64,000 bases of DNA from an uncultured Sulfolobales archaeon (GTDB lineage: Archaea > Thermoproteota > Thermoprotei_A > Sulfolobales > NBVN01), in NCBI GenBank assembly GCA_937949785.1, contig CALEDH010000003.1:1-64000 (forward strand), written 5' to 3'. The notes below the pieces were generated by a model that worked only from the letters and a program-made list of their open reading frames with translations, did no database searches and was not told the DNA's origin. Below are positions 37,046-44,909 of the stretch, one piece after another. The stretch's first letter is position 1; every line of letters starts with the position of its first letter. Position numbers and translations under genes: made by a program.

Positions 37046-38386
37046 CTAGTTAGATTGCAGTCCTAACTCCTTTAACGTTTTTCCTATACTTAATAATTTG
37101 TTAACTACGTTGCTAGGGTTTTCACCGAGCACTGCTATCATGGCCTCCTTACCGTAATCACCTCTATGATAGATTACGTCCGGGACGAATCCGACTCTCT
37201 TAATAGCCTCTCCAACACCCCACGGAATGGTCGCACCTTCAACGGACTTAACCTCCGGGGGTTCTAAGGACCTATCGTAAAATGAAGTAGTATACCCTAA
37301 CTTCTCAATAGCCTTAAGGATTAGGTCGTCAAACCTTATGTTAGCTACAGACCTAATCTTAGGGTCATACTCCATGACCTTTATTAACGCCTTAGCTAGG
37401 TGTTTAGAAGCACCAAATTCGGGTTGGGAGGTAGCCTTAACAACGTTACCTACTTTAACTATCCTGCCCGGAACCGCTGCTACATCATTTAAACCTCTTA
37501 CAAAACGTTTAGGTAACGAGTAGGCTAAGTTCATCTGAACTTCAGGTATTAAATCGATTATTAGGTGGGAGTTCTCCTCTATAATTCTAACCGCGTTAGC
37601 TAATTCATTAATAACCTTAAATTTCTCAGCATCTAGGACTGTCACTCCATAAACATCTGGTATCAAATACGTCCTACATCTTACCCCGTAGTCTACAGAC
37701 ATCCTAGCAAATTTCAACGCGCTATTAACTAAGTCTTTCAATTCTGCCTTACTGGCTAGGCCTAACGTAATGTAAGTAGCCACCACTTCCTTAGGTAGCT
37801 CTACTTGATCCTTGAATTCTAAACAGTTACCAGCATGGTAAATTAGGTTTACGAAGCCACCGCACATTACTTTATGGTTTAATAATACAACAACATCTAT
37901 ATTTAAGGTATTTGATAGAGACTTAATGAGATCGTGAACGGATTCTGAAGAAATGCCTAATACCTTAGATAAGTATTCAGCTATATCTGATGTGATGAAC
38001 AGTATGCTGGAAGCGCTGATCAAGTCATTAATGCTTAAACGCTTTAAACGCTCATATGTTAGGCATTCCGATAGAACGTCAGCGCTTAAAGTCAGTGCCT
38101 TAACCTCTAACCTACTCATACTTAAACGCTCTTTAATGTAGTTAATAATTGAGACACTCATAGCGGCATTAAGTTTGATGGTGTTGACATTGCTTAAATC
38201 TAATACTTCAAGCTGCTTAATTATTTCCTCCGCTTTTACGTTTAAGAGGGCTTTACCACCGCTAACGATTTTAGTTACTACAGGATAGCATTCAACCCCG
38301 AATAACTTACATAGCTCTAAATCTAGGTATATACCATCTCTTAAAGTTAGGTCGAATTCGTTAAGGATAAGTACTTTCGTTTTCAT
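37046..38386 (-). CDS. ThiD-ThiN fusion: HMP(-P) kinase-like / thiamine phosphate synthase
   Basis: A 446-residue two-domain protein for thiamine synthesis. Residues about 1-265 resemble ThiD but the ligand loops are degenerate (the usual Gly-rich GSGGAG start reads LTLRDG, and the phosphate-loop GTGC near the end of the domain is not conserved). Residues about 275-440 are a ThiN domain with FDDLILKAIEKLG, YDRSLEPPEVKSVEG and YHRGDYGKEA, which makes thiamine phosphate in archaea lacking ThiE. It follows the 2-oxoacid dehydrogenase genes on the same strand, but has its own TATA-like box just upstream of the ATG. Thiamine diphosphate is the cofactor of the E1 subunits next door. Confidence 0.85.
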   Translation of the reverse strand: MKTKVLILNEFDLTLRDGIYLDLELCKLFGVECYPVVTKIVSGGKALLNVKAEEIIKQLEVLDLSNVNTIKLNAAMSVSIINYIKERLSMSRLEVKALTLSADVLSECLTYERLKRLSINDLISASSILFITSDIAEYLSKVLGISSESVHDLIKSLSNTLNIDVVVLLNHKVMCGGFVNLIYHAGNCLEFKDQVELPKEVVATYITLGLASKAELKDLVNSALKFARMSVDYGVRCRTYLIPDVYGVTVLDAEKFKVINELANAVRIIEENSHLIIDLIPEVQMNLAYSLPKRFVRGLNDVAAVPGRIVKVGNVVKATSQPEFGASKHLAKALIKVMEYDPKIRSVANIRFDDLILKAIEKLGYTTSFYDRSLEPPEVKSVEGATIPWGVGEAIKRVGFVPDVIYHRGDYGKEAMIAVLGENPSNVVNKLLSIGKTLKELGLQSN

Positions 38387-38422: not shown

Positions 38423-39778
38423 TTAAATGTGTATGGGTTTCCTAAGTATGACTAATGCAGCCTCCTTAATCGCTTCAGACACCGTTGGATGTACGTATAA
38501 GGTATTTAAGAGATCTGCTACATCTCCATTCCTACTTAAGACCAGCGATGCTATATGAACGATCTCCGAGGCTTCAGGCCCTATCATATGCGCTCCTAAG
38601 AGCTTACCCTTCATATCAGCCACTATCTTAATGAAACCTTCGTAGGAGTCTAAAGTAAGTGCCCTACCATTAGCTATTAACGGGAACTTACCTACGGCAA
38701 TCTCCCCCACCGCTTTTCTAGCCTCACTTTCGCTCATACCTACACTAGCAACCTCAGGGTCTGCGAATACCGCTATAGGGACCGCTGAGTAGTTAATAGT
38801 TGAGTTAAGTCCTAAAGCGTTCTCAGCAGCTACAACACCCTCTTCAAAAGCTGTATATGCTAGGAAGTACTTCCCAACAACGTCGCCGGCCGCATATACA
38901 TTAGGTACGTTAGTCATCATGTTGTTATTGGTTATTATCTCCCCCCTCCCACCGACTTTAATTCCTAAGGCTTCAACACCTAGGTCAGCTGTGTTAGGCT
39001 TCCTACCAACCGCTAGGACTACTCTATCAACTGTTAGTTTAACGTTATTAGATAGGTAGACCTCCACACCATCTGAGGTTCTGTCAAACCTGTGGACCAA
39101 CGTATTAGTATGTATTCGAATACCTTCCCTGGAGAGAATTTTTTGTAATGCTAACGCTACCTCACTATCTATGTTTGGTAGTATGTGAGGCATAACCTCT
39201 ACAACGCTTACCTCACTTCCTAACGTATTATAAATCTGAGCTAATTCCACTCCTATAGGACCGCCTCCAACTATTAGAAGTCTTTGGGGGACTTCATTCA
39301 TAGTGATGAAGTGGTCACCGCTTACAGCATTAGCTGACTCAATGCCTGGAATTCTTAGCTGAGCAGGTATGGAACCAGTAGCTACTATTAATCTATCATA
39401 GCTGAGCTTACTTCCCCCGACCTCAACGAATCCGTTACCTAATGCCTTAACCTCCCCATATACTATCTGCACACCTGACTTTCTTAGTAAGTATTCAACG
39501 CCCTTCACCAACCTACTCACGATAGAATCCTTATTAGTGAAAACTTTCTCGACGTTGATTATTAAATCACCGCTTAATATACCCTTCTTCTTAAACTGCT
39601 TTAACTTCTTTATAGTAGATGATATAGAGTTTAAAGCCTTAGTAGGTATGCATCCCCTATTAACGCAGACACCACCGATAGAATCCTTCTCTACGACTAT
39701 GACTTCACCTCCTAATCGCGCTGCTCTTATAGCAGCTACGTAACCAGCAGGACCTGAACCAACTACGACTATCCTCAT
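38423..39778 (-). CDS. lpdA: Dihydrolipoamide dehydrogenase (E3)
   Basis: About 451 residues, the flavoprotein that reoxidises dihydrolipoyl groups with NAD+. The FAD-binding GSGPAG start, redox cysteines in GGVCVNRGCIPTKA, the NAD-binding GGGPIGVE near residue 175 and the C-terminal HPTVSEA with the active-site His near 440 are all present. The ATG at 39778 is preferred because a TATA-like TAAAATTT lies about 24 bases before it. An in-frame ATG six codons earlier is also possible. Fifth gene of the complex. Confidence 0.92.
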   Translation of the reverse strand: MRIVVVGSGPAGYVAAIRAARLGGEVIVVEKDSIGGVCVNRGCIPTKALNSISSTIKKLKQFKKKGILSGDLIINVEKVFTNKDSIVSRLVKGVEYLLRKSGVQIVYGEVKALGNGFVEVGGSKLSYDRLIVATGSIPAQLRIPGIESANAVSGDHFITMNEVPQRLLIVGGGPIGVELAQIYNTLGSEVSVVEVMPHILPNIDSEVALALQKILSREGIRIHTNTLVHRFDRTSDGVEVYLSNNVKLTVDRVVLAVGRKPNTADLGVEALGIKVGGRGEIITNNNMMTNVPNVYAAGDVVGKYFLAYTAFEEGVVAAENALGLNSTINYSAVPIAVFADPEVASVGMSESEARKAVGEIAVGKFPLIANGRALTLDSYEGFIKIVADMKGKLLGAHMIGPEASEIVHIASLVLSRNGDVADLLNTLYVHPTVSEAIKEAALVILRKPIHI

Positions 39779-39798
39779 ATAAGAGTCCCTTAACATCT

Positions 39799-39827: not shown

Positions 39828-40544
39828 CTAGACCTCACTATCTTTAATTACCGATTCAGGCTTTTCGAGGAACACCTTCAAAGTAGCTAAGAACTCAGCA
39901 CCGTCATATCCATCAACTACTCTGTGGTCGAATGTAAGGCTAAACACGCATGTAGGCCTTACTTTTATCTCGTTATTAATAACTAAAGGCTTATCTACTA
40001 TCCTACCGATACCGAGGATAGCTACCTGCGGCGGGTTTATTATCTGAGTGAACGCGTCTACAGAACCTAATATACCAACATTCGATATGGTGAAGGTCCC
40101 TTCTGCTAGGTCTTTAATACTGAGCTTACCGTCCCGAGCCCTACTTACCAATTCGTTAAGTTGTAAGGCGATCTCCCCTAATTTTCTTAGATTAGCATTC
40201 CTAATCACAGGTGTGACTAACCCTAGCTTACTGCTTTGAACCGCTACACATATGTTTATATCTTCTATTACCTTAACCTCATCACCATCTATAATTGAGT
40301 TAAACACTTGATGATTGTTAAGGACGTGAGAAATAAGCTTTACGAATAATGATGTATAAGTTAAACGCGTATTATACTTATCCATAATTATCGGTTCTAA
40401 CCTACTCTTTAGTTCCTTCAGATAGCCAATGTCAAACTCGCCATGGAGTGTTACATGAACTCTTTCCTCATAACTCTTTGAGAGCCTCTCAGCTATCGTT
40501 GCCCGGGGCCATGACTTCAACGATAAGGTCTTAATAACTTTCAT
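39828..40544 (-). CDS. 2-oxoacid dehydrogenase acyltransferase E2, catalytic domain only
   Basis: A 238-residue E2 core. The catalytic His207 and Asp211 are in DHRVVDGYDGA and the VTPVIRN and GTFTISNVG segments typical of this domain are present. There is no lipoyl domain and no peripheral subunit-binding domain, both of which are normally in the same chain. The lipoyl domain is a separate gene ending 25 bases upstream. The protein begins with a complete catalytic-domain N-terminus, so the split is not an obvious frameshift. How E1 and E3 dock without the binding domain is unclear. Confidence 0.88.
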   Translation of the reverse strand: MKVIKTLSLKSWPRATIAERLSKSYEERVHVTLHGEFDIGYLKELKSRLEPIIMDKYNTRLTYTSLFVKLISHVLNNHQVFNSIIDGDEVKVIEDINICVAVQSSKLGLVTPVIRNANLRKLGEIALQLNELVSRARDGKLSIKDLAEGTFTISNVGILGSVDAFTQIINPPQVAILGIGRIVDKPLVINNEIKVRPTCVFSLTFDHRVVDGYDGAEFLATLKVFLEKPESVIKDSEV

Positions 40545-40569
40545 TGATTAAACTCCTCACCTATAGAGC

Positions 40570-40812
40570 CTATTCAATTATAGCTACGGCCTTACCGACC
40601 GGGACGACATCACCTACGTTTGCAAGTAATTTCTTAATTACTCCTGACTTAGGTGCTTCTAATTCGAAGACGACTTTCTCAGCCTCAACCCTCGCTATTA
40701 TTTCCCCCTCACTAACCGGATCTCCTTCACCCTTCAGCCACTCTACTATCCTACCCTCCCTCATTTCAGGGTCCATTCTGGGCATTATTACTTCAACCAA
40801 GTTCACACCCAA
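40570..40812 (-). CDS. Free-standing lipoyl-domain protein of the 2-oxoacid dehydrogenase complex
   Basis: An 80-residue protein consisting of a single biotin/lipoyl-attachment domain. Lys46 in the turn VEAEKVV is the expected lipoylated lysine. The glycines of the flanking turns and the final GKAVAIIE strand are conserved. It sits between the E1 beta gene (14 bases away) and the E2 catalytic gene (25 bases away). It should shuttle acyl groups between E1, E2 and E3, but here as a mobile separate protein or a non-covalent subunit. Confidence 0.9.
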   Translation of the reverse strand: MGVNLVEVIMPRMDPEMREGRIVEWLKGEGDPVSEGEIIARVEAEKVVFELEAPKSGVIKKLLANVGDVVPVGKAVAIIE

Positions 40813-40826
40813 TAATATTCGTAATT

Positions 40827-41837
40827 TTATTTATATAACTGCTTACCTGATTTAACTAATGTTTTTACGGTGCTTATCAATTTCTCCTCATTAGGTAGGA
40901 ACGCGTTGTATGCCTTAGGAGAGAATGGTGGTGGAATATCCTCAGCTGCTAACCTAACCGCAGGTGCTTTAAGGTAGTCAAGAGCTTCCTCCATAGCTAT
41001 CGCTATTACCTCAGCACCGACGCCAGCTGTTTTATGGTCTGGTTCAATGACTACTAAGCGCCCTGTCTTCTTAATAGACTCCACTAAAGTCTTCTTATCG
41101 AATGGATTAAGAGTTCTAGGGTCTACGACCTCAATACTTATCCCCTCACCCTCTAATTTCTTAGCTGCTGAGAGAGCTATGTGAACCATGTACGAAACGG
41201 CGAACACTGTGACATCACTACCTTCCTTCTTAACGTCTGCCTGACCTAAAGGTATCGTATACTCCTCAGCTGGGACTGGACCTCTCAACCTATATAGGGC
41301 AGCACACTCTATGAATATGTCCGGGTTTTCATCCCTTATAGCAGATTTAAGCAATCCTTTAGCATCATAAGGCGTTGAAGGTACTTCAACATACACTCCC
41401 GGGATGTTCATTAGGAATGCTGGATAGAACTGTGAGTGTTGGGCTGCCGCATACCTGTAAAGCCCGTACTGAGTCCTTATGACGGCTGGAACTTTAAGCT
41501 TACCCCCACTCATATACCTAATCTTAGGTAAGTGGTTGATTACCTGATCCCCAGCACACATTAGGAAATCCATATACATTATCTCAGCAATAGGTCTCAT
41601 ACCAGCTATTGCAGCGCCTATAGCTGCACCAACGATGGCTGTTTCCGATATGGGGGTATCCCTAACCCTTTCACGGCCGAATTCCTCATAAAGCCCTTGA
41701 GTAACCTTAAACACGCCTCCGATTAACCCTATATCCTCACCCATCAAGAAGACTCTATCATCTCTTAACATCTCTTCTCTTAACGCCTCCCTCAACGCCT
41801 CTGCGTAAGTTATCTCACGTACTGCCATCCCCATCAC
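40827..41837 (-). CDS. 2-oxoacid dehydrogenase E1 beta subunit
   Basis: A 336-residue transketolase-fold subunit. GEDIGLIGGVFKVT near residue 33 and the C-terminal VVIEPDHKTAGVGAEV are typical of PdhB/BkdB. With E1 alpha it forms the TPP-dependent decarboxylase that passes an acyl group to lipoate. The start (GTG at 41837 or ATG at 41834) overlaps the E1 alpha stop, so expression is coupled. Pyruvate, branched-chain or acetoin-type substrate is not determined. The complete complex with this gene order resembles the one in Thermoplasma, which prefers branched-chain oxoacids. Confidence 0.9.
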   Translation of the reverse strand: MMGMAVREITYAEALREALREEMLRDDRVFLMGEDIGLIGGVFKVTQGLYEEFGRERVRDTPISETAIVGAAIGAAIAGMRPIAEIMYMDFLMCAGDQVINHLPKIRYMSGGKLKVPAVIRTQYGLYRYAAAQHSQFYPAFLMNIPGVYVEVPSTPYDAKGLLKSAIRDENPDIFIECAALYRLRGPVPAEEYTIPLGQADVKKEGSDVTVFAVSYMVHIALSAAKKLEGEGISIEVVDPRTLNPFDKKTLVESIKKTGRLVVIEPDHKTAGVGAEVIAIAMEEALDYLKAPAVRLAAEDIPPPFSPKAYNAFLPNEEKLISTVKTLVKSGKQLYK

Positions 41838-42811
41838 CTCACATATACGAAATGCTTAACAAACTCTAAATCAGGTTCTTCGCTCTCCCTCGCAAACCTA
41901 ACAGCTTCATCGACGTCGTGTACCGCTTTACTCTCTAGGCGACTTAACTCTGACTCCGTGGATATCCCCTCACCTATTAATCTCTCCTTCAAAACCTTTA
42001 TAGGGCACCTTTGCTTCCACATCATAAATTCCTCATCACTCCTATACTTACCTAAGTAGTACATTCCGTGGTCAAGCCATCTATAGGTCCTAGCTTCGAT
42101 TAACGTAGGGCCTTCACCTCTTCGCGCCCTCTCAACAGATTTTAAGGTTGCTTCATACACTGCCACGACATCATTACCGTCAACCACAATACCTGGCATG
42201 TTATAGGATACCGCTCTATCAACTATTTCCTTAGCGGAGACTGATTTACTGATATGCATTGAGATCGCATAGAAGTTATTCTCGCATACGAAGACTATAG
42301 GTAGTTTCCAAACCGATGCTAAGTTAAGTGCTTCATGGAATGCCCCAGTATTAGTGGCTCCATCACCGAAGAATGAAACCGCAACTCTATCCTCCCCACG
42401 CATCTTAAACGCTAACGCAACACCTACCGCTATAGGTATATTACCACCAACTATAGCTGATGAAAATATCACACCAACTTCCGGCTCTGTGCTATGCATG
42501 GAGCCGCCTATACCCTTACAAACACCTGACTTCTTACCGTAGAGTTCAGCCATTAGGTGCCTGGGATCTATACCCTTCGCCAGGCTGTGTCCGTGACCCC
42601 TATGAGTACTTAGTATGTAGTCATCCTTTCTGAGAGCTGAGCATACACCTACTGCGACACCTTCTTGGCCTACATAACCATGTGCTATGCCGGGAATCTC
42701 ACCAGCTCTGTAAAGCTCTACTACCCTTTCCTCAAACCTTCTCAATAAGACCATCTTATAATACATATCGAGGAGTAGTTCCTTACTCAACGACTTTAAA
42801 CTCAGATACAT
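41834..42811 (-). CDS. 2-oxoacid dehydrogenase E1 alpha subunit
   Basis: About 325 residues. The thiamine diphosphate motif GDGATNTG ... CENN near residue 145-175 is complete, and the N-terminal MYYKMVLLRRFEERV is typical of the family. The frame is open to 42847, but a TATA-like TTTTAAAT lies inside that extension about 27 bases before the ATG at 42811, so I chose the shorter start. First gene of the minus-strand complex. Its upstream gap is shared with the divergent SDR gene. Confidence 0.9.
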   Translation of the reverse strand: MYLSLKSLSKELLLDMYYKMVLLRRFEERVVELYRAGEIPGIAHGYVGQEGVAVGVCSALRKDDYILSTHRGHGHSLAKGIDPRHLMAELYGKKSGVCKGIGGSMHSTEPEVGVIFSSAIVGGNIPIAVGVALAFKMRGEDRVAVSFFGDGATNTGAFHEALNLASVWKLPIVFVCENNFYAISMHISKSVSAKEIVDRAVSYNMPGIVVDGNDVVAVYEATLKSVERARRGEGPTLIEARTYRWLDHGMYYLGKYRSDEEFMMWKQRCPIKVLKERLIGEGISTESELSRLESKAVHDVDEAVRFARESEEPDLEFVKHFVYVR

Positions 42812-42912
42812 CACCAACATAAAAATCGGTATGACATTTAAAACCATTTCAATAATTGAGGACCTTCTTATATGCTATAAAATTTTTTAGATCTCTGTGA
42901 AGATCTTCTACG

Positions 42913-43668
42913 GTGTTTGCCTTGAAGCTACAGGGACGTGTGGCCATTGTAACTGGTGGTGCTAGAGGTATAGGTAAGGCAATCGCGGCAGAATTCACTA
43001 AGGAGGGAGCTAAGGTGGTCTTAATCGATATTGCTGAAGAAGAACTAACTAAGACGGCTGAGGAGCTAGGTAGATATGGGGAGGTAATATCTATAAAGAC
43101 GGATGTATCGAAAGTTGATGAAATACAGAGGGCGGTACAGGAAGTAATACGTAGGTATGGTAGGGTAGATATTTTAGTGAATAATGCCGGGATCTTCTCA
43201 AGAAGTTCTCTTGAGGAATTAACTGAGGAGAGTTGGGACAGGATTATGAAGGTTAACCTAACCTCTGCAGTAATGTTCTCTAGGGAAGTTGTTAAGTATA
43301 TGAAGGACCAAGGCTTCGGTAAGATAATTAATATGGCATCACTTGCTGGTCAGGTAGGCGGTATATATGCGGGGGTAGACTACGCGGTCTCTAAGGCTGG
43401 TCTTATATGTTTAACTAAGTCCTTAGCTAGGAGGCTAGCTAAGTATAACATACTAGTTAACGCGGTTGCTCCAGGAGTTATAGAAAGCCCTATGACCGCA
43501 CCGTGGCCTGAAGAAGTTAAAGCAGGGTTTATCCAGAAAATACCTTTAGGTAGGTTAGGCAGACCTGAGGACGTAGCCAAAGTAGTGTTATTCCTAGCCT
43601 CCGATGATTCTAACTACATAACCGGTCAGATCATAAACGTAGATGGAGGTATATCTATAGGTCCTTAA
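42913..43668 (+). CDS. Short-chain dehydrogenase/reductase (FabG-like)
   Basis: A 251-residue classical SDR. The cofactor loop TGGARGIG, the NNAG motif near residue 92, the catalytic Ser, Tyr and Lys (MASLAGQVGG and YAVSK) and the final ITGQIINVDGG are present. The substrate is unknown. It is divergent from the E1 alpha gene with a 100-base shared promoter region holding CTATAAAATT. The GTG at 42913 or a TTG three codons later (with GGTG upstream) may be the true start. Confidence 0.88.
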   Translation: MFALKLQGRVAIVTGGARGIGKAIAAEFTKEGAKVVLIDIAEEELTKTAEELGRYGEVISIKTDVSKVDEIQRAVQEVIRRYGRVDILVNNAGIFSRSSLEELTEESWDRIMKVNLTSAVMFSREVVKYMKDQGFGKIINMASLAGQVGGIYAGVDYAVSKAGLICLTKSLARRLAKYNILVNAVAPGVIESPMTAPWPEEVKAGFIQKIPLGRLGRPEDVAKVVLFLASDDSNYITGQIINVDGGISIGP

Positions 43669-43757: not shown

Positions 43758-44909
43758 CTACCACAGCTTAAGTGACCTCATTAATATTCTCTCTATAAGT
43801 TTTTTGCTTGCATCTACAGGGCTTTGATTAAGCAACCTACGCATTAATAATGTCTTCTCAGCTATTGATGGTATGTCAGACTCCTTAATACCTAAATCAT
43901 ATAATCCGTTCGGGAATTCAAACCCTGAGAGTAGGTCTTTAATAGCTTCAACGGACCTAGCAGCACGCTTCTTTATGCTAGGCTCATCATCGTAACCTAA
44001 CATACCAGCGATCTTAGCTAATTTTTCAGGTACTACTTCAATTAATACCTCCAGCAATGCTGGGGCTGTAATAGCAGCACATACACCGTGTGACGCATCT
44101 GTAATTCCACCTAATACTAAAGATATAGCATGTGATATATGAGTTCCTGCATTACCTAATGCTATACCAGCCATATAGGATGCTAGGGACATACCAAATC
44201 TAGCTTCTAAGTCCTGGCCGTTATGGTAGGCCCTCTTCAAGTACTTCCCTATAAGTTCTATTGACCTCTCTGCAATGTTATCAGATACAGGATTAGAACC
44301 TACGTAGACAGGCCTTAAATCACTCCTAATAGGTTTAGGTCTTACGTTATATGGTTTAGAGGTGTAGGCCTCGATAGCATGCATTAACGCGTCTAACCCT
44401 GTTGAGGCAGTAGTCTGCTGAGGCATAGTAATAGTGTTTATTGGATCTACCACGGCTAGGGTTGGGAGTAAGTACTCATGAGTTAAACCAAACTTCAACC
44501 CACTCTCAGCGACTGTAAATACTGCCGTAGGGGTTGTCTCACTACCGCTACCAGATGTTGTGGGTATGGCTATAAGCGGTTTTAAAACCCCCGGAATGGG
44601 CTTACCCTTACCTACTGGTTGTGGTATATAGTCTAAGACGCTCTCTGTTGGGTAAGTCGTATATAGGTTAATCAATTTCGCAGTATCGATTGAGCTCCCA
44701 CCACCAACAGCTACTAAAGCATCAAACTTAACGTCGGACGCGTACTCAATACCCTCCTCAACAGATTCTAAAGTTGGTTCTGGTTCAACCCCATTCCAAA
44801 TACCTACCTCAATACCTTCTGACTCAACGTTCTTCACAATATTTCTGATGATCTCTGTTTTTTCGTAGATGTTTTTACCGCATATAAGTAATGCCTTCGA
44901 CACCTTCAT
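43758..44909 (-). CDS. Iron-containing alcohol dehydrogenase, copy 2, with problematic N-terminus
   Basis: From its first ATG the protein has 383 residues with GGGSSIDTAK near 69, TTSGSGSETT near 114, DALMHAIEAYT and the histidine ligands in HISHAI and DASHGVCAA, so the catalytic part is intact. However, the family's N-terminal strand-turn (VFTFRASQAKVGVGATKE) is encoded in the same frame upstream to about 45010, where no ATG, GTG or TTG is present. A TATA-like GTTTAAAAAC at 45056-45065 points to a start near 45033-45037. The only plausible codon there, a GTG at 45033, is in another frame. A one-base frameshift or a non-standard start codon is likely. Confidence 0.8.
   Translation of the reverse strand: MKVSKALLICGKNIYEKTEIIRNIVKNVESEGIEVGIWNGVEPEPTLESVEEGIEYASDVKFDALVAVGGGSSIDTAKLINLYTTYPTESVLDYIPQPVGKGKPIPGVLKPLIAIPTTSGSGSETTPTAVFTVAESGLKFGLTHEYLLPTLAVVDPINTITMPQQTTASTGLDALMHAIEAYTSKPYNVRPKPIRSDLRPVYVGSNPVSDNIAERSIELIGKYLKRAYHNGQDLEARFGMSLASYMAGIALGNAGTHISHAISLVLGGITDASHGVCAAITAPALLEVLIEVVPEKLAKIAGMLGYDDEPSIKKRAARSVEAIKDLLSGFEFPNGLYDLGIKESDIPSIAEKTLLMRRLLNQSPVDASKKLIERILMRSLKLW

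What the first reader, a model, noticed from the sequence alone, without database searches (positions are those of the whole stretch)
39828..40812. E2 of the 2-oxoacid dehydrogenase complex split into a lone lipoyl domain and a lone catalytic domain, with no subunit-binding domain
E2 normally carries lipoyl, subunit-binding and catalytic domains in one chain. Here the lipoyl domain (80 aa, Lys46) and the catalytic core (238 aa, His207/Asp211) are separate genes 25 bases apart and no subunit-binding domain is found between them. A separate lipoyl protein would act as a diffusing carrier, as in the glycine cleavage system.
Basis: partly seen in the sequence, partly recalled or inferred. Interest (0 to 1): 0.6.

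Follow-up and report, generated by a model that had tools for sequence, protein, structure and literature searches.

The report
Archaeal dehydrogenase E2 in two pieces
In this uncultured archaeon and several distant relatives, the central protein of a pyruvate-dehydrogenase-like machine is made as two unlinked pieces that lack the usual docking domain, so the swinging arm that normally hands intermediates between enzymes probably works as a loose carrier protein.

Summary
In an E1α–E1β–LD–CAT–E3–ThiN operon, an 80-aa lipoyl domain (LD) and a 238-aa catalytic domain (CAT) are separate genes, and the operon has no subunit-binding domain (PSBD). It is not a frameshift: the split recurs in three relatives (four genomes, three genera) with different spacers and strong protein conservation. 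That literally meets their refutation clause but does not undo the split. Across Thermoproteota, CAT-only E2s arose several times: at least four changes on starred branches, and one origin is rejected (p-AU 4e-31). Several near-complete genomes with split E2s have no detectable PSBD anywhere. The split operon's E3 also lacks both acidic residues that dock the PSBD in the solved bacterial E3. Most likely the LD shuttles in trans between E1, a CAT trimer and E3, as GcvH does; diffusion versus a stable untethered assembly is untested. Separate LDs, PSBD-less E2 and lipoyl-in-trans are each known; a dedicated system combining all three is a new variant.

The parts
41834..42847 (-). E1 alpha (thiamine-diphosphate dehydrogenase alpha subunit)
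   Evidence: PF00676 289 bits; TIGR03182 364 bits, below its 393.85 cut-off
40827..41837 (-). E1 beta; overlaps E1 alpha by 4 bases
   Evidence: PF02779 and PF02780; NF006667 367.8 bits, over its cut-off of 321
40570..40812 (-). stand-alone lipoyl domain protein (80 aa, lipoyl lysine K46); ends with the domain, no linker
   Evidence: PF00364 65.5 bits; 82-92% identical between four genomes of three genera
40555..40561 (-). GGTGAGG, Shine-Dalgarno-like site before the catalytic-domain start codon
   Evidence: sequence read; inference from motif only
39828..40544 (-). stand-alone E2 acyltransferase catalytic domain (238 aa; H207, D211), no lipoyl domain, no PSBD
   Evidence: PF00198 221 bits, no PF02817 at E up to 1; closest solved cores are 2-oxoglutarate dehydrogenase E2
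38423..39796 (-). E3, dihydrolipoyl dehydrogenase; PSBD-docking acidic positions are N335 and S421
   Evidence: TIGR01350 484 bits, over its cut-off of 408.8; alignment to PDB 1ebd
37046..38386 (-). ThiN-domain protein (thiamine-phosphate synthase domain), last gene of the cluster
   Evidence: PF10120 205 bits; kept next to E3 in G001, G004 and G006
42913..43668 (+). SDR oxidoreductase, divergent neighbour conserved in relatives; membership in the system uncertain
   Evidence: PF13561 241 bits; present beside the operon in G001, G004 and G006
43758..44909 (-). iron-containing alcohol dehydrogenase, neighbour conserved in G001 and G004; membership uncertain
   Evidence: PF00465 149.5 bits

Best explanation
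This is a 2-oxoacid (or acetoin) dehydrogenase system whose E2 has been split into an 80-aa lipoyl carrier protein and a catalytic acyltransferase, and from which the peripheral subunit-binding domain has been lost. Shown: gene anatomy, intact catalytic and lipoylation motifs, conservation of the split, recurrence in other lineages, and absence of PSBD in the operon. Inferred: the lipoylated LD is acylated by E1, carries the acyl group in trans to the active site between CAT subunits (a trimer, as in known members of the fold), where it is handed to CoA, and is reoxidised by the E3 of the same operon. E1 and E3 would not be tethered to the core by a PSBD; the LD would work as a soluble carrier, as GcvH does in glycine cleavage.
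For: LD and CAT are complete and separate, without linkers. All parts needed for the cycle (E1 alpha, E1 beta, LD, CAT, E3) sit in one tight operon, conserved with ThiN in four genomes of three genera. LD is 82-92% identical between them, above the tethered LD of the second complex (75-81%), so it is under strong constraint. CAT-only E2s evolved repeatedly (5 changes, at least 4 forced by starred branches; single origin rejected, p-AU 4e-31), most with a separate LD gene beside them. PF02817 is undetectable genome-wide in G073 (one contig, 99% complete), G522 (98%), G303 (96%), G348 (94%) and others, with G323 showing only a 14.6-bit match. The window E3 has N335 and S421 where the bacterial E3 has the PSBD-docking Asp and Glu; its three orthologues have N or K, and S. 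Lipoate-ligase family proteins are in the genome.
Against: No biochemistry: direct E1-CAT, LD-E1 or LD-CAT complexes are not excluded. A PSBD-bearing E2 is encoded elsewhere in the same genome. The E3 of that canonical operon also lacks the acidic pair, so its absence does not by itself prove PSBD-free function. The genome is 87% complete. The structure prediction of CAT was poor, so trimerisation is by homology only.
Confidence: 0.68

Rival explanations
1. The parts form a stable complex by direct contacts (E1 on CAT, or LD on E1), as E1o and E2o domains contact each other in actinobacterial OdhA, so the LD is held locally although not covalently tethered.
For: OdhA shows E1 and E2 catalytic domains can assemble directly and use lipoyl groups in trans (PMC10415282). 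All genes are kept in one cluster.
Against: The E1 beta of the split operon and that of its CAT sister G522 fall in different E1 clades, so CAT seems to have changed E1 partners, which argues against a long-coevolved E1-CAT interface. No extra domain on E1 or E3.
Confidence: 0.2
2. The split subunits are accessory to the canonical complex of the same genome: the C8 full-length E2 supplies the PSBD scaffold (and possibly lipoyl domains), and the split operon plugs into it.
For: A full-length LD-PSBD-CAT E2 operon coexists in G000, G001, G004 and G006. Mixed PDH/ODH complexes are proposed in Corynebacterium (PMC10415282).
Against: The split operon is self-sufficient (own E1, LD, CAT, E3). Its E3 lacks both PSBD-docking acidic residues. 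LDs and CATs of the two complexes are only 40-47% and 42-54% identical. Split systems in other lineages have no detectable PSBD anywhere.
Confidence: 0.08
3. Artefact: a sequencing frameshift or stop in a normal fused E2.
For: None found; the genome is a draft.
Against: Split, order and a complete domain end on both sides are conserved in independent assemblies with different spacer lengths. No PSBD or linker remnant lies between the genes.
Confidence: 0.01

Closest known systems
Dihydrolipoyl acyltransferase (E2) of 2-oxoacid dehydrogenase complexes
   Same: Lipoyl domain and catalytic domain with DHRxxDG motif; operon with E1 alpha/beta and E3
   Different: Two polypeptides, no linkers, no PSBD; separate LD gene
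Glycine cleavage H protein (GcvH) and lipoate-binding proteins (LbpA, PMC6067878)
   Same: Small stand-alone lipoyl carrier expected to visit several enzymes by diffusion
   Different: Sequence is an E2-type lipoyl domain (PF00364 65.5 bits; GCV_H only 15.4 bits, below cut-off) and it is encoded with E1, CAT and E3
Actinobacterial OdhA/KGD (PMC10415282)
   Same: E2 catalytic domain without its own lipoyl domain; lipoyl group supplied in trans
   Different: OdhA is fused to E1 and borrows lipoyl groups from the PDH E2; here a dedicated LD gene sits in the operon and CAT is unfused
Eukaryotic 2-oxoglutarate dehydrogenase E2o with MRPS36 (PMC9974300)
   Same: PSBD lost from E2
   Different: There the LD stays fused to the core and MRPS36 is proposed to replace the PSBD as E3 adaptor; no such adaptor seen in this operon
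Single-domain lipoyl proteins of archaea (class noted in PMC3904984; an unattached lipoyl domain in Haloferax 2-oxoacid dehydrogenase operons is recalled from own knowledge, not checked)
   Same: Stand-alone E2-type lipoyl domain
   Different: In the passages read, the paper does not describe a PSBD-less CAT-only E2 or a pairing of the two in an operon

Membership tests
2-oxoacid dehydrogenase complex E2 | Acyltransferase catalytic domain with His/Asp active site (DHRxxDG) | tested here: met
   PF00198 221 bits; H207 and D211 invariant in 15 CAT-only homologues
2-oxoacid dehydrogenase complex E2 | Lipoyl domain in the same chain | tested here: not met
   Separate gene, frames differ, conserved in relatives
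2-oxoacid dehydrogenase complex E2 | Peripheral subunit-binding domain | tested here: not met
   No PF02817 in LD or CAT at E up to 1; the genome's only match is in the C8 E2
2-oxoacid dehydrogenase complex E2 | Trimer-based multimeric core | not testable with these tools
   AlphaFold2 model from 3 sequences poor, pLDDT 49.6; multimer prediction not available
2-oxoacid dehydrogenase system (whole) | E1 alpha/beta, lipoyl carrier, acyltransferase and E3 encoded together | tested here: met
GcvH / LbpA carriers | GCV_H-type lipoyl protein | tested here: not met
   GCV_H 15.4 bits against cut-off 22.2; E2-type PF00364 65.5 bits
GcvH / LbpA carriers (works like) | Free carrier shuttling between enzymes | not testable with these tools
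   Inferred from absence of linker and PSBD
OdhA-type E2 | E2 catalytic domain fused to E1 | tested here: not met
   CAT is 238 aa and alone
Acetoin dehydrogenase (Aco) system | AcoX-type gene in the operon | tested here: not met
   The AcoX-like (NAD-kinase-like) gene is in the C8 operon, not in the window operon; the AcoX name rests on own knowledge of aco operons
Acetoin dehydrogenase (Aco) system | E1 specificity for acetoin | not testable with these tools
   E1 alpha is below the PDH equivalog cut-offs; substrate unknown

The most novel reading that the evidence does not exclude
Several Thermoproteota lineages have independently dissolved the 2-oxoacid dehydrogenase megacomplex into freely diffusing E1, acyltransferase trimers, E3 and a soluble lipoyl carrier, showing that neither swinging-arm tethering nor PSBD docking is needed for function, and letting CAT and E1 modules be exchanged between systems.
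Probability: 0.4. Interest if true: 0.75.

Novelty: new variant of a known kind. Interest (0 to 1): 0.55.

Why it matters
The 2-oxoacid dehydrogenase complexes are the textbook case of substrate channelling by a tethered swinging arm. A natural system with the arm cut loose and the docking domain gone, evolved several times, would be a ready-made experiment on what tethering is for, and the small separate proteins should be easy to express and reconstitute. It also qualifies the picture that PSBD loss from E2 is a eukaryotic E2o trait (PMC9974300, which regards archaeal E2o as likely to have a PSBD).

Tried and rejected
AlphaFold2 of CAT with three sequences gave pLDDT 49.6 and pTM 0.48; discarded, no fold search made on it. 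Frameshift artefact: rejected on conserved split with variable spacers. Idea that a special lipoyl-domain loop (MPRxDPxM) marks split LDs: rejected, tethered LDs in L102, L106, L107 and L108 have a similar loop. Loss of the C-terminal trimer-trimer 'knob': split CATs end in LEKPESVIKDSEV-like tails rather than LLENPALLF-like ones, but some full-length E2s also lack it, so it was not used as evidence. Acetoin dehydrogenase assignment: considered because of SDR and Fe-ADH neighbours, not supported by a defining feature. Literature searches for a described LD/CAT split found none in the open library; a subscription paper on Haloferax was not held.

Full report
OBSERVATION. The minus strand carries a tight cluster: E1 alpha (41834-42847), E1 beta (40827-41837), an 80-aa lipoyl domain protein (40570-40812), a 238-aa acyltransferase (39828-40544), E3 (38423-39796) and a ThiN-domain protein (37046-38386). 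The lipoyl protein's best match is PF00364 (65.5 bits), and the protein ends with the domain. The acyltransferase matches PF00198 (221 bits, profile positions 13-230 of 232) and not PF02817 even at E up to 1. The genes are 25 bases apart, in different frames, with a GGTGAGG motif before the second start codon.

NOT AN ARTEFACT. The same order E1a-E1b-LD-CAT-E3-ThiN is found in G001 and G004, and in G006 with an insertion between E1b and LD; spacers between LD and CAT differ (25, 24, 9, 10 bases), while the LDs are 82-92% and the CATs 73-78% identical. These are four genomes of three genera of one family.

The genome (1.385 Mb, 29 contigs, 87% complete) has a second operon on contig C8: E1a, E1b, an AcoX-like NAD-kinase-family protein, a full-length E2 of 397 aa with LD, PSBD (PF02817, 49 bits, 53) and catalytic domain, E3 and a lipoate-ligase-family protein. 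The three close relatives have both operons too. So the organism has one canonical and one split system. The two CATs are only 42% identical in G000.

HOW WIDESPREAD. In the class (229 genomes, 60 with PF00198) the open frames of about 17 genomes are too short to hold a lipoyl domain (own count, contig-edge fragments and weak matches left out). Reading the loci gives these kinds. CAT-only with a separate LD in the same stretch: G000, G001, G004, G006, G522, G073, G550 and, in other classes of the phylum, G303, G323, G348 and G328. CAT-only without an LD in the stretch read: G087, G228, G256, G403, G413. Separate LD plus a 273-280-aa protein with a PSBD or its remnant before CAT: G011, G039 and G119 (PSBD detected, 31-37 bits), and G047, G146, G122, G135 and G140 (about 45 extra residues, PF02817 not detected). 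PF02817 is absent at E up to 0.1 from the whole genome of G047, G073, G087, G122, G135, G140, G146, G522, G303, G348, G145 and G550; G323 has only a 14.6-bit match. The search rings in 11 of 14 control genomes. Strongly diverged PSBDs can be missed, but a 220-240-aa CAT-only protein has no room for one.

EVOLUTION. A maximum-likelihood tree of 50 CAT domains puts the window CAT with G001, G004, G006 and G522 (100/100). CAT-only proteins need five changes on the tree, at least four forced by starred branches; holding them in one clade is rejected (p-AU 4e-31), and so is one clade of all split forms (p-AU 2.5e-4). The groups were named from architecture before the tree. The E1 beta tree (quick method) puts the window E1 with non-AcoX E1s of distant families (98), whereas the E1 of G522, the CAT sister, falls among AcoX-type E1s. 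CAT and E1 thus seem to have been recombined, which is easier once the E2 is in pieces (inference).

E3 DOCKING SITE. In the solved G. stearothermophilus E3-PSBD complex (PDB 1ebd) the docking acids are, from own knowledge, Asp344 and Glu431; PMC9974300 describes the contact as an electrostatic zipper. Aligned with 1ebd, the window E3 has N335 and S421, and its three orthologues N or K, and S. E3s in operons with full-length non-AcoX E2s mostly keep both acids. E3s of PSBD-less lineages G303, G323, G348 and G073 have K at the Glu position, and G135 has L. The C8 E3s also lack the pair although their E2 has a PSBD, so this is supporting, not decisive, evidence; it does weaken the idea that the split operon's E3 docks on the C8 PSBD in the canonical way.

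MECHANISM. Known family chemistry gives E1 decarboxylation and reductive acylation of lipoyl-LD, transfer to CoA at the CAT subunit interface, and reoxidation by E3. What is new here is how the parts meet. With no linker and no PSBD the simplest account is a soluble lipoyl carrier visiting three separate enzymes, as GcvH does. The genome also has a GcvT-GcvH-like pair and a second GcvH-like protein (named from sequence by eye), so soluble lipoyl carriers are not foreign to this cell. Substrate is unknown: E1 alpha lies below the PDH equivalog cut-offs; the conserved SDR and Fe-alcohol dehydrogenase neighbours are compatible with acetoin or butanediol metabolism but prove nothing.

KNOWN AND NEW. 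Lipoyl in trans (OdhA, PMC10415282), PSBD-less E2 (eukaryotic E2o with MRPS36, PMC9974300) and single-domain lipoyl proteins in archaea (PMC3904984) are each known. The combination, in a dedicated operon and recurring in several lineages, was not found in the open literature searched. Verdict: new variant of a known kind; the mechanism is inferred, not shown.

Noticed in passing
L029:4068-10340 (G000 contig C8): Second, canonical operon with an AcoX-like NAD-kinase-family gene and a lipoate ligase; its E3 is divergent (304 bits, below the 408.8 cut-off) and lacks the PSBD-docking acids although the E2 has a PSBD.
   Followed up: partly
G522 and G047 whole genomes: Both have E1, separate LD, E2 and AcoX-like genes, but no full-length dihydrolipoyl dehydrogenase match (best 129 and 146 bits, partial); how dihydrolipoyl is reoxidised is unclear.
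   Followed up: no
L034:8802-11426 (G006): A zinc-type alcohol dehydrogenase and a histone-deacetylase-like protein (named by eye) sit inside the split operon between E1 beta and LD.
   Followed up: no
L096, L098, L099, L100 (G228, G256, G403, G413): CAT-only genes with no LD or E1 in the stretch read, in genomes that also have a full-length PSBD-bearing E2.
   Followed up: partly
L109:6702-8099 (G314): A 465-aa E2 with LD directly before CAT, no PF02817 match anywhere in the genome and a long C-terminal extension: apparent PSBD loss without splitting.
   Followed up: partly
L004:203-1758 and L005:1339-1794 (G000 contigs C15, C1): GcvT-like next to a GcvH-like protein, and a second GcvH-like protein beside a lactate-utilisation-like iron-sulphur protein (names by eye).
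   Followed up: no
window:37046-38386: A ThiN-domain protein follows E3 in the split operon in all four genomes, suggesting coupled supply of the E1 cofactor; it is the least conserved protein of the cluster (43-55% identity).
   Followed up: partly
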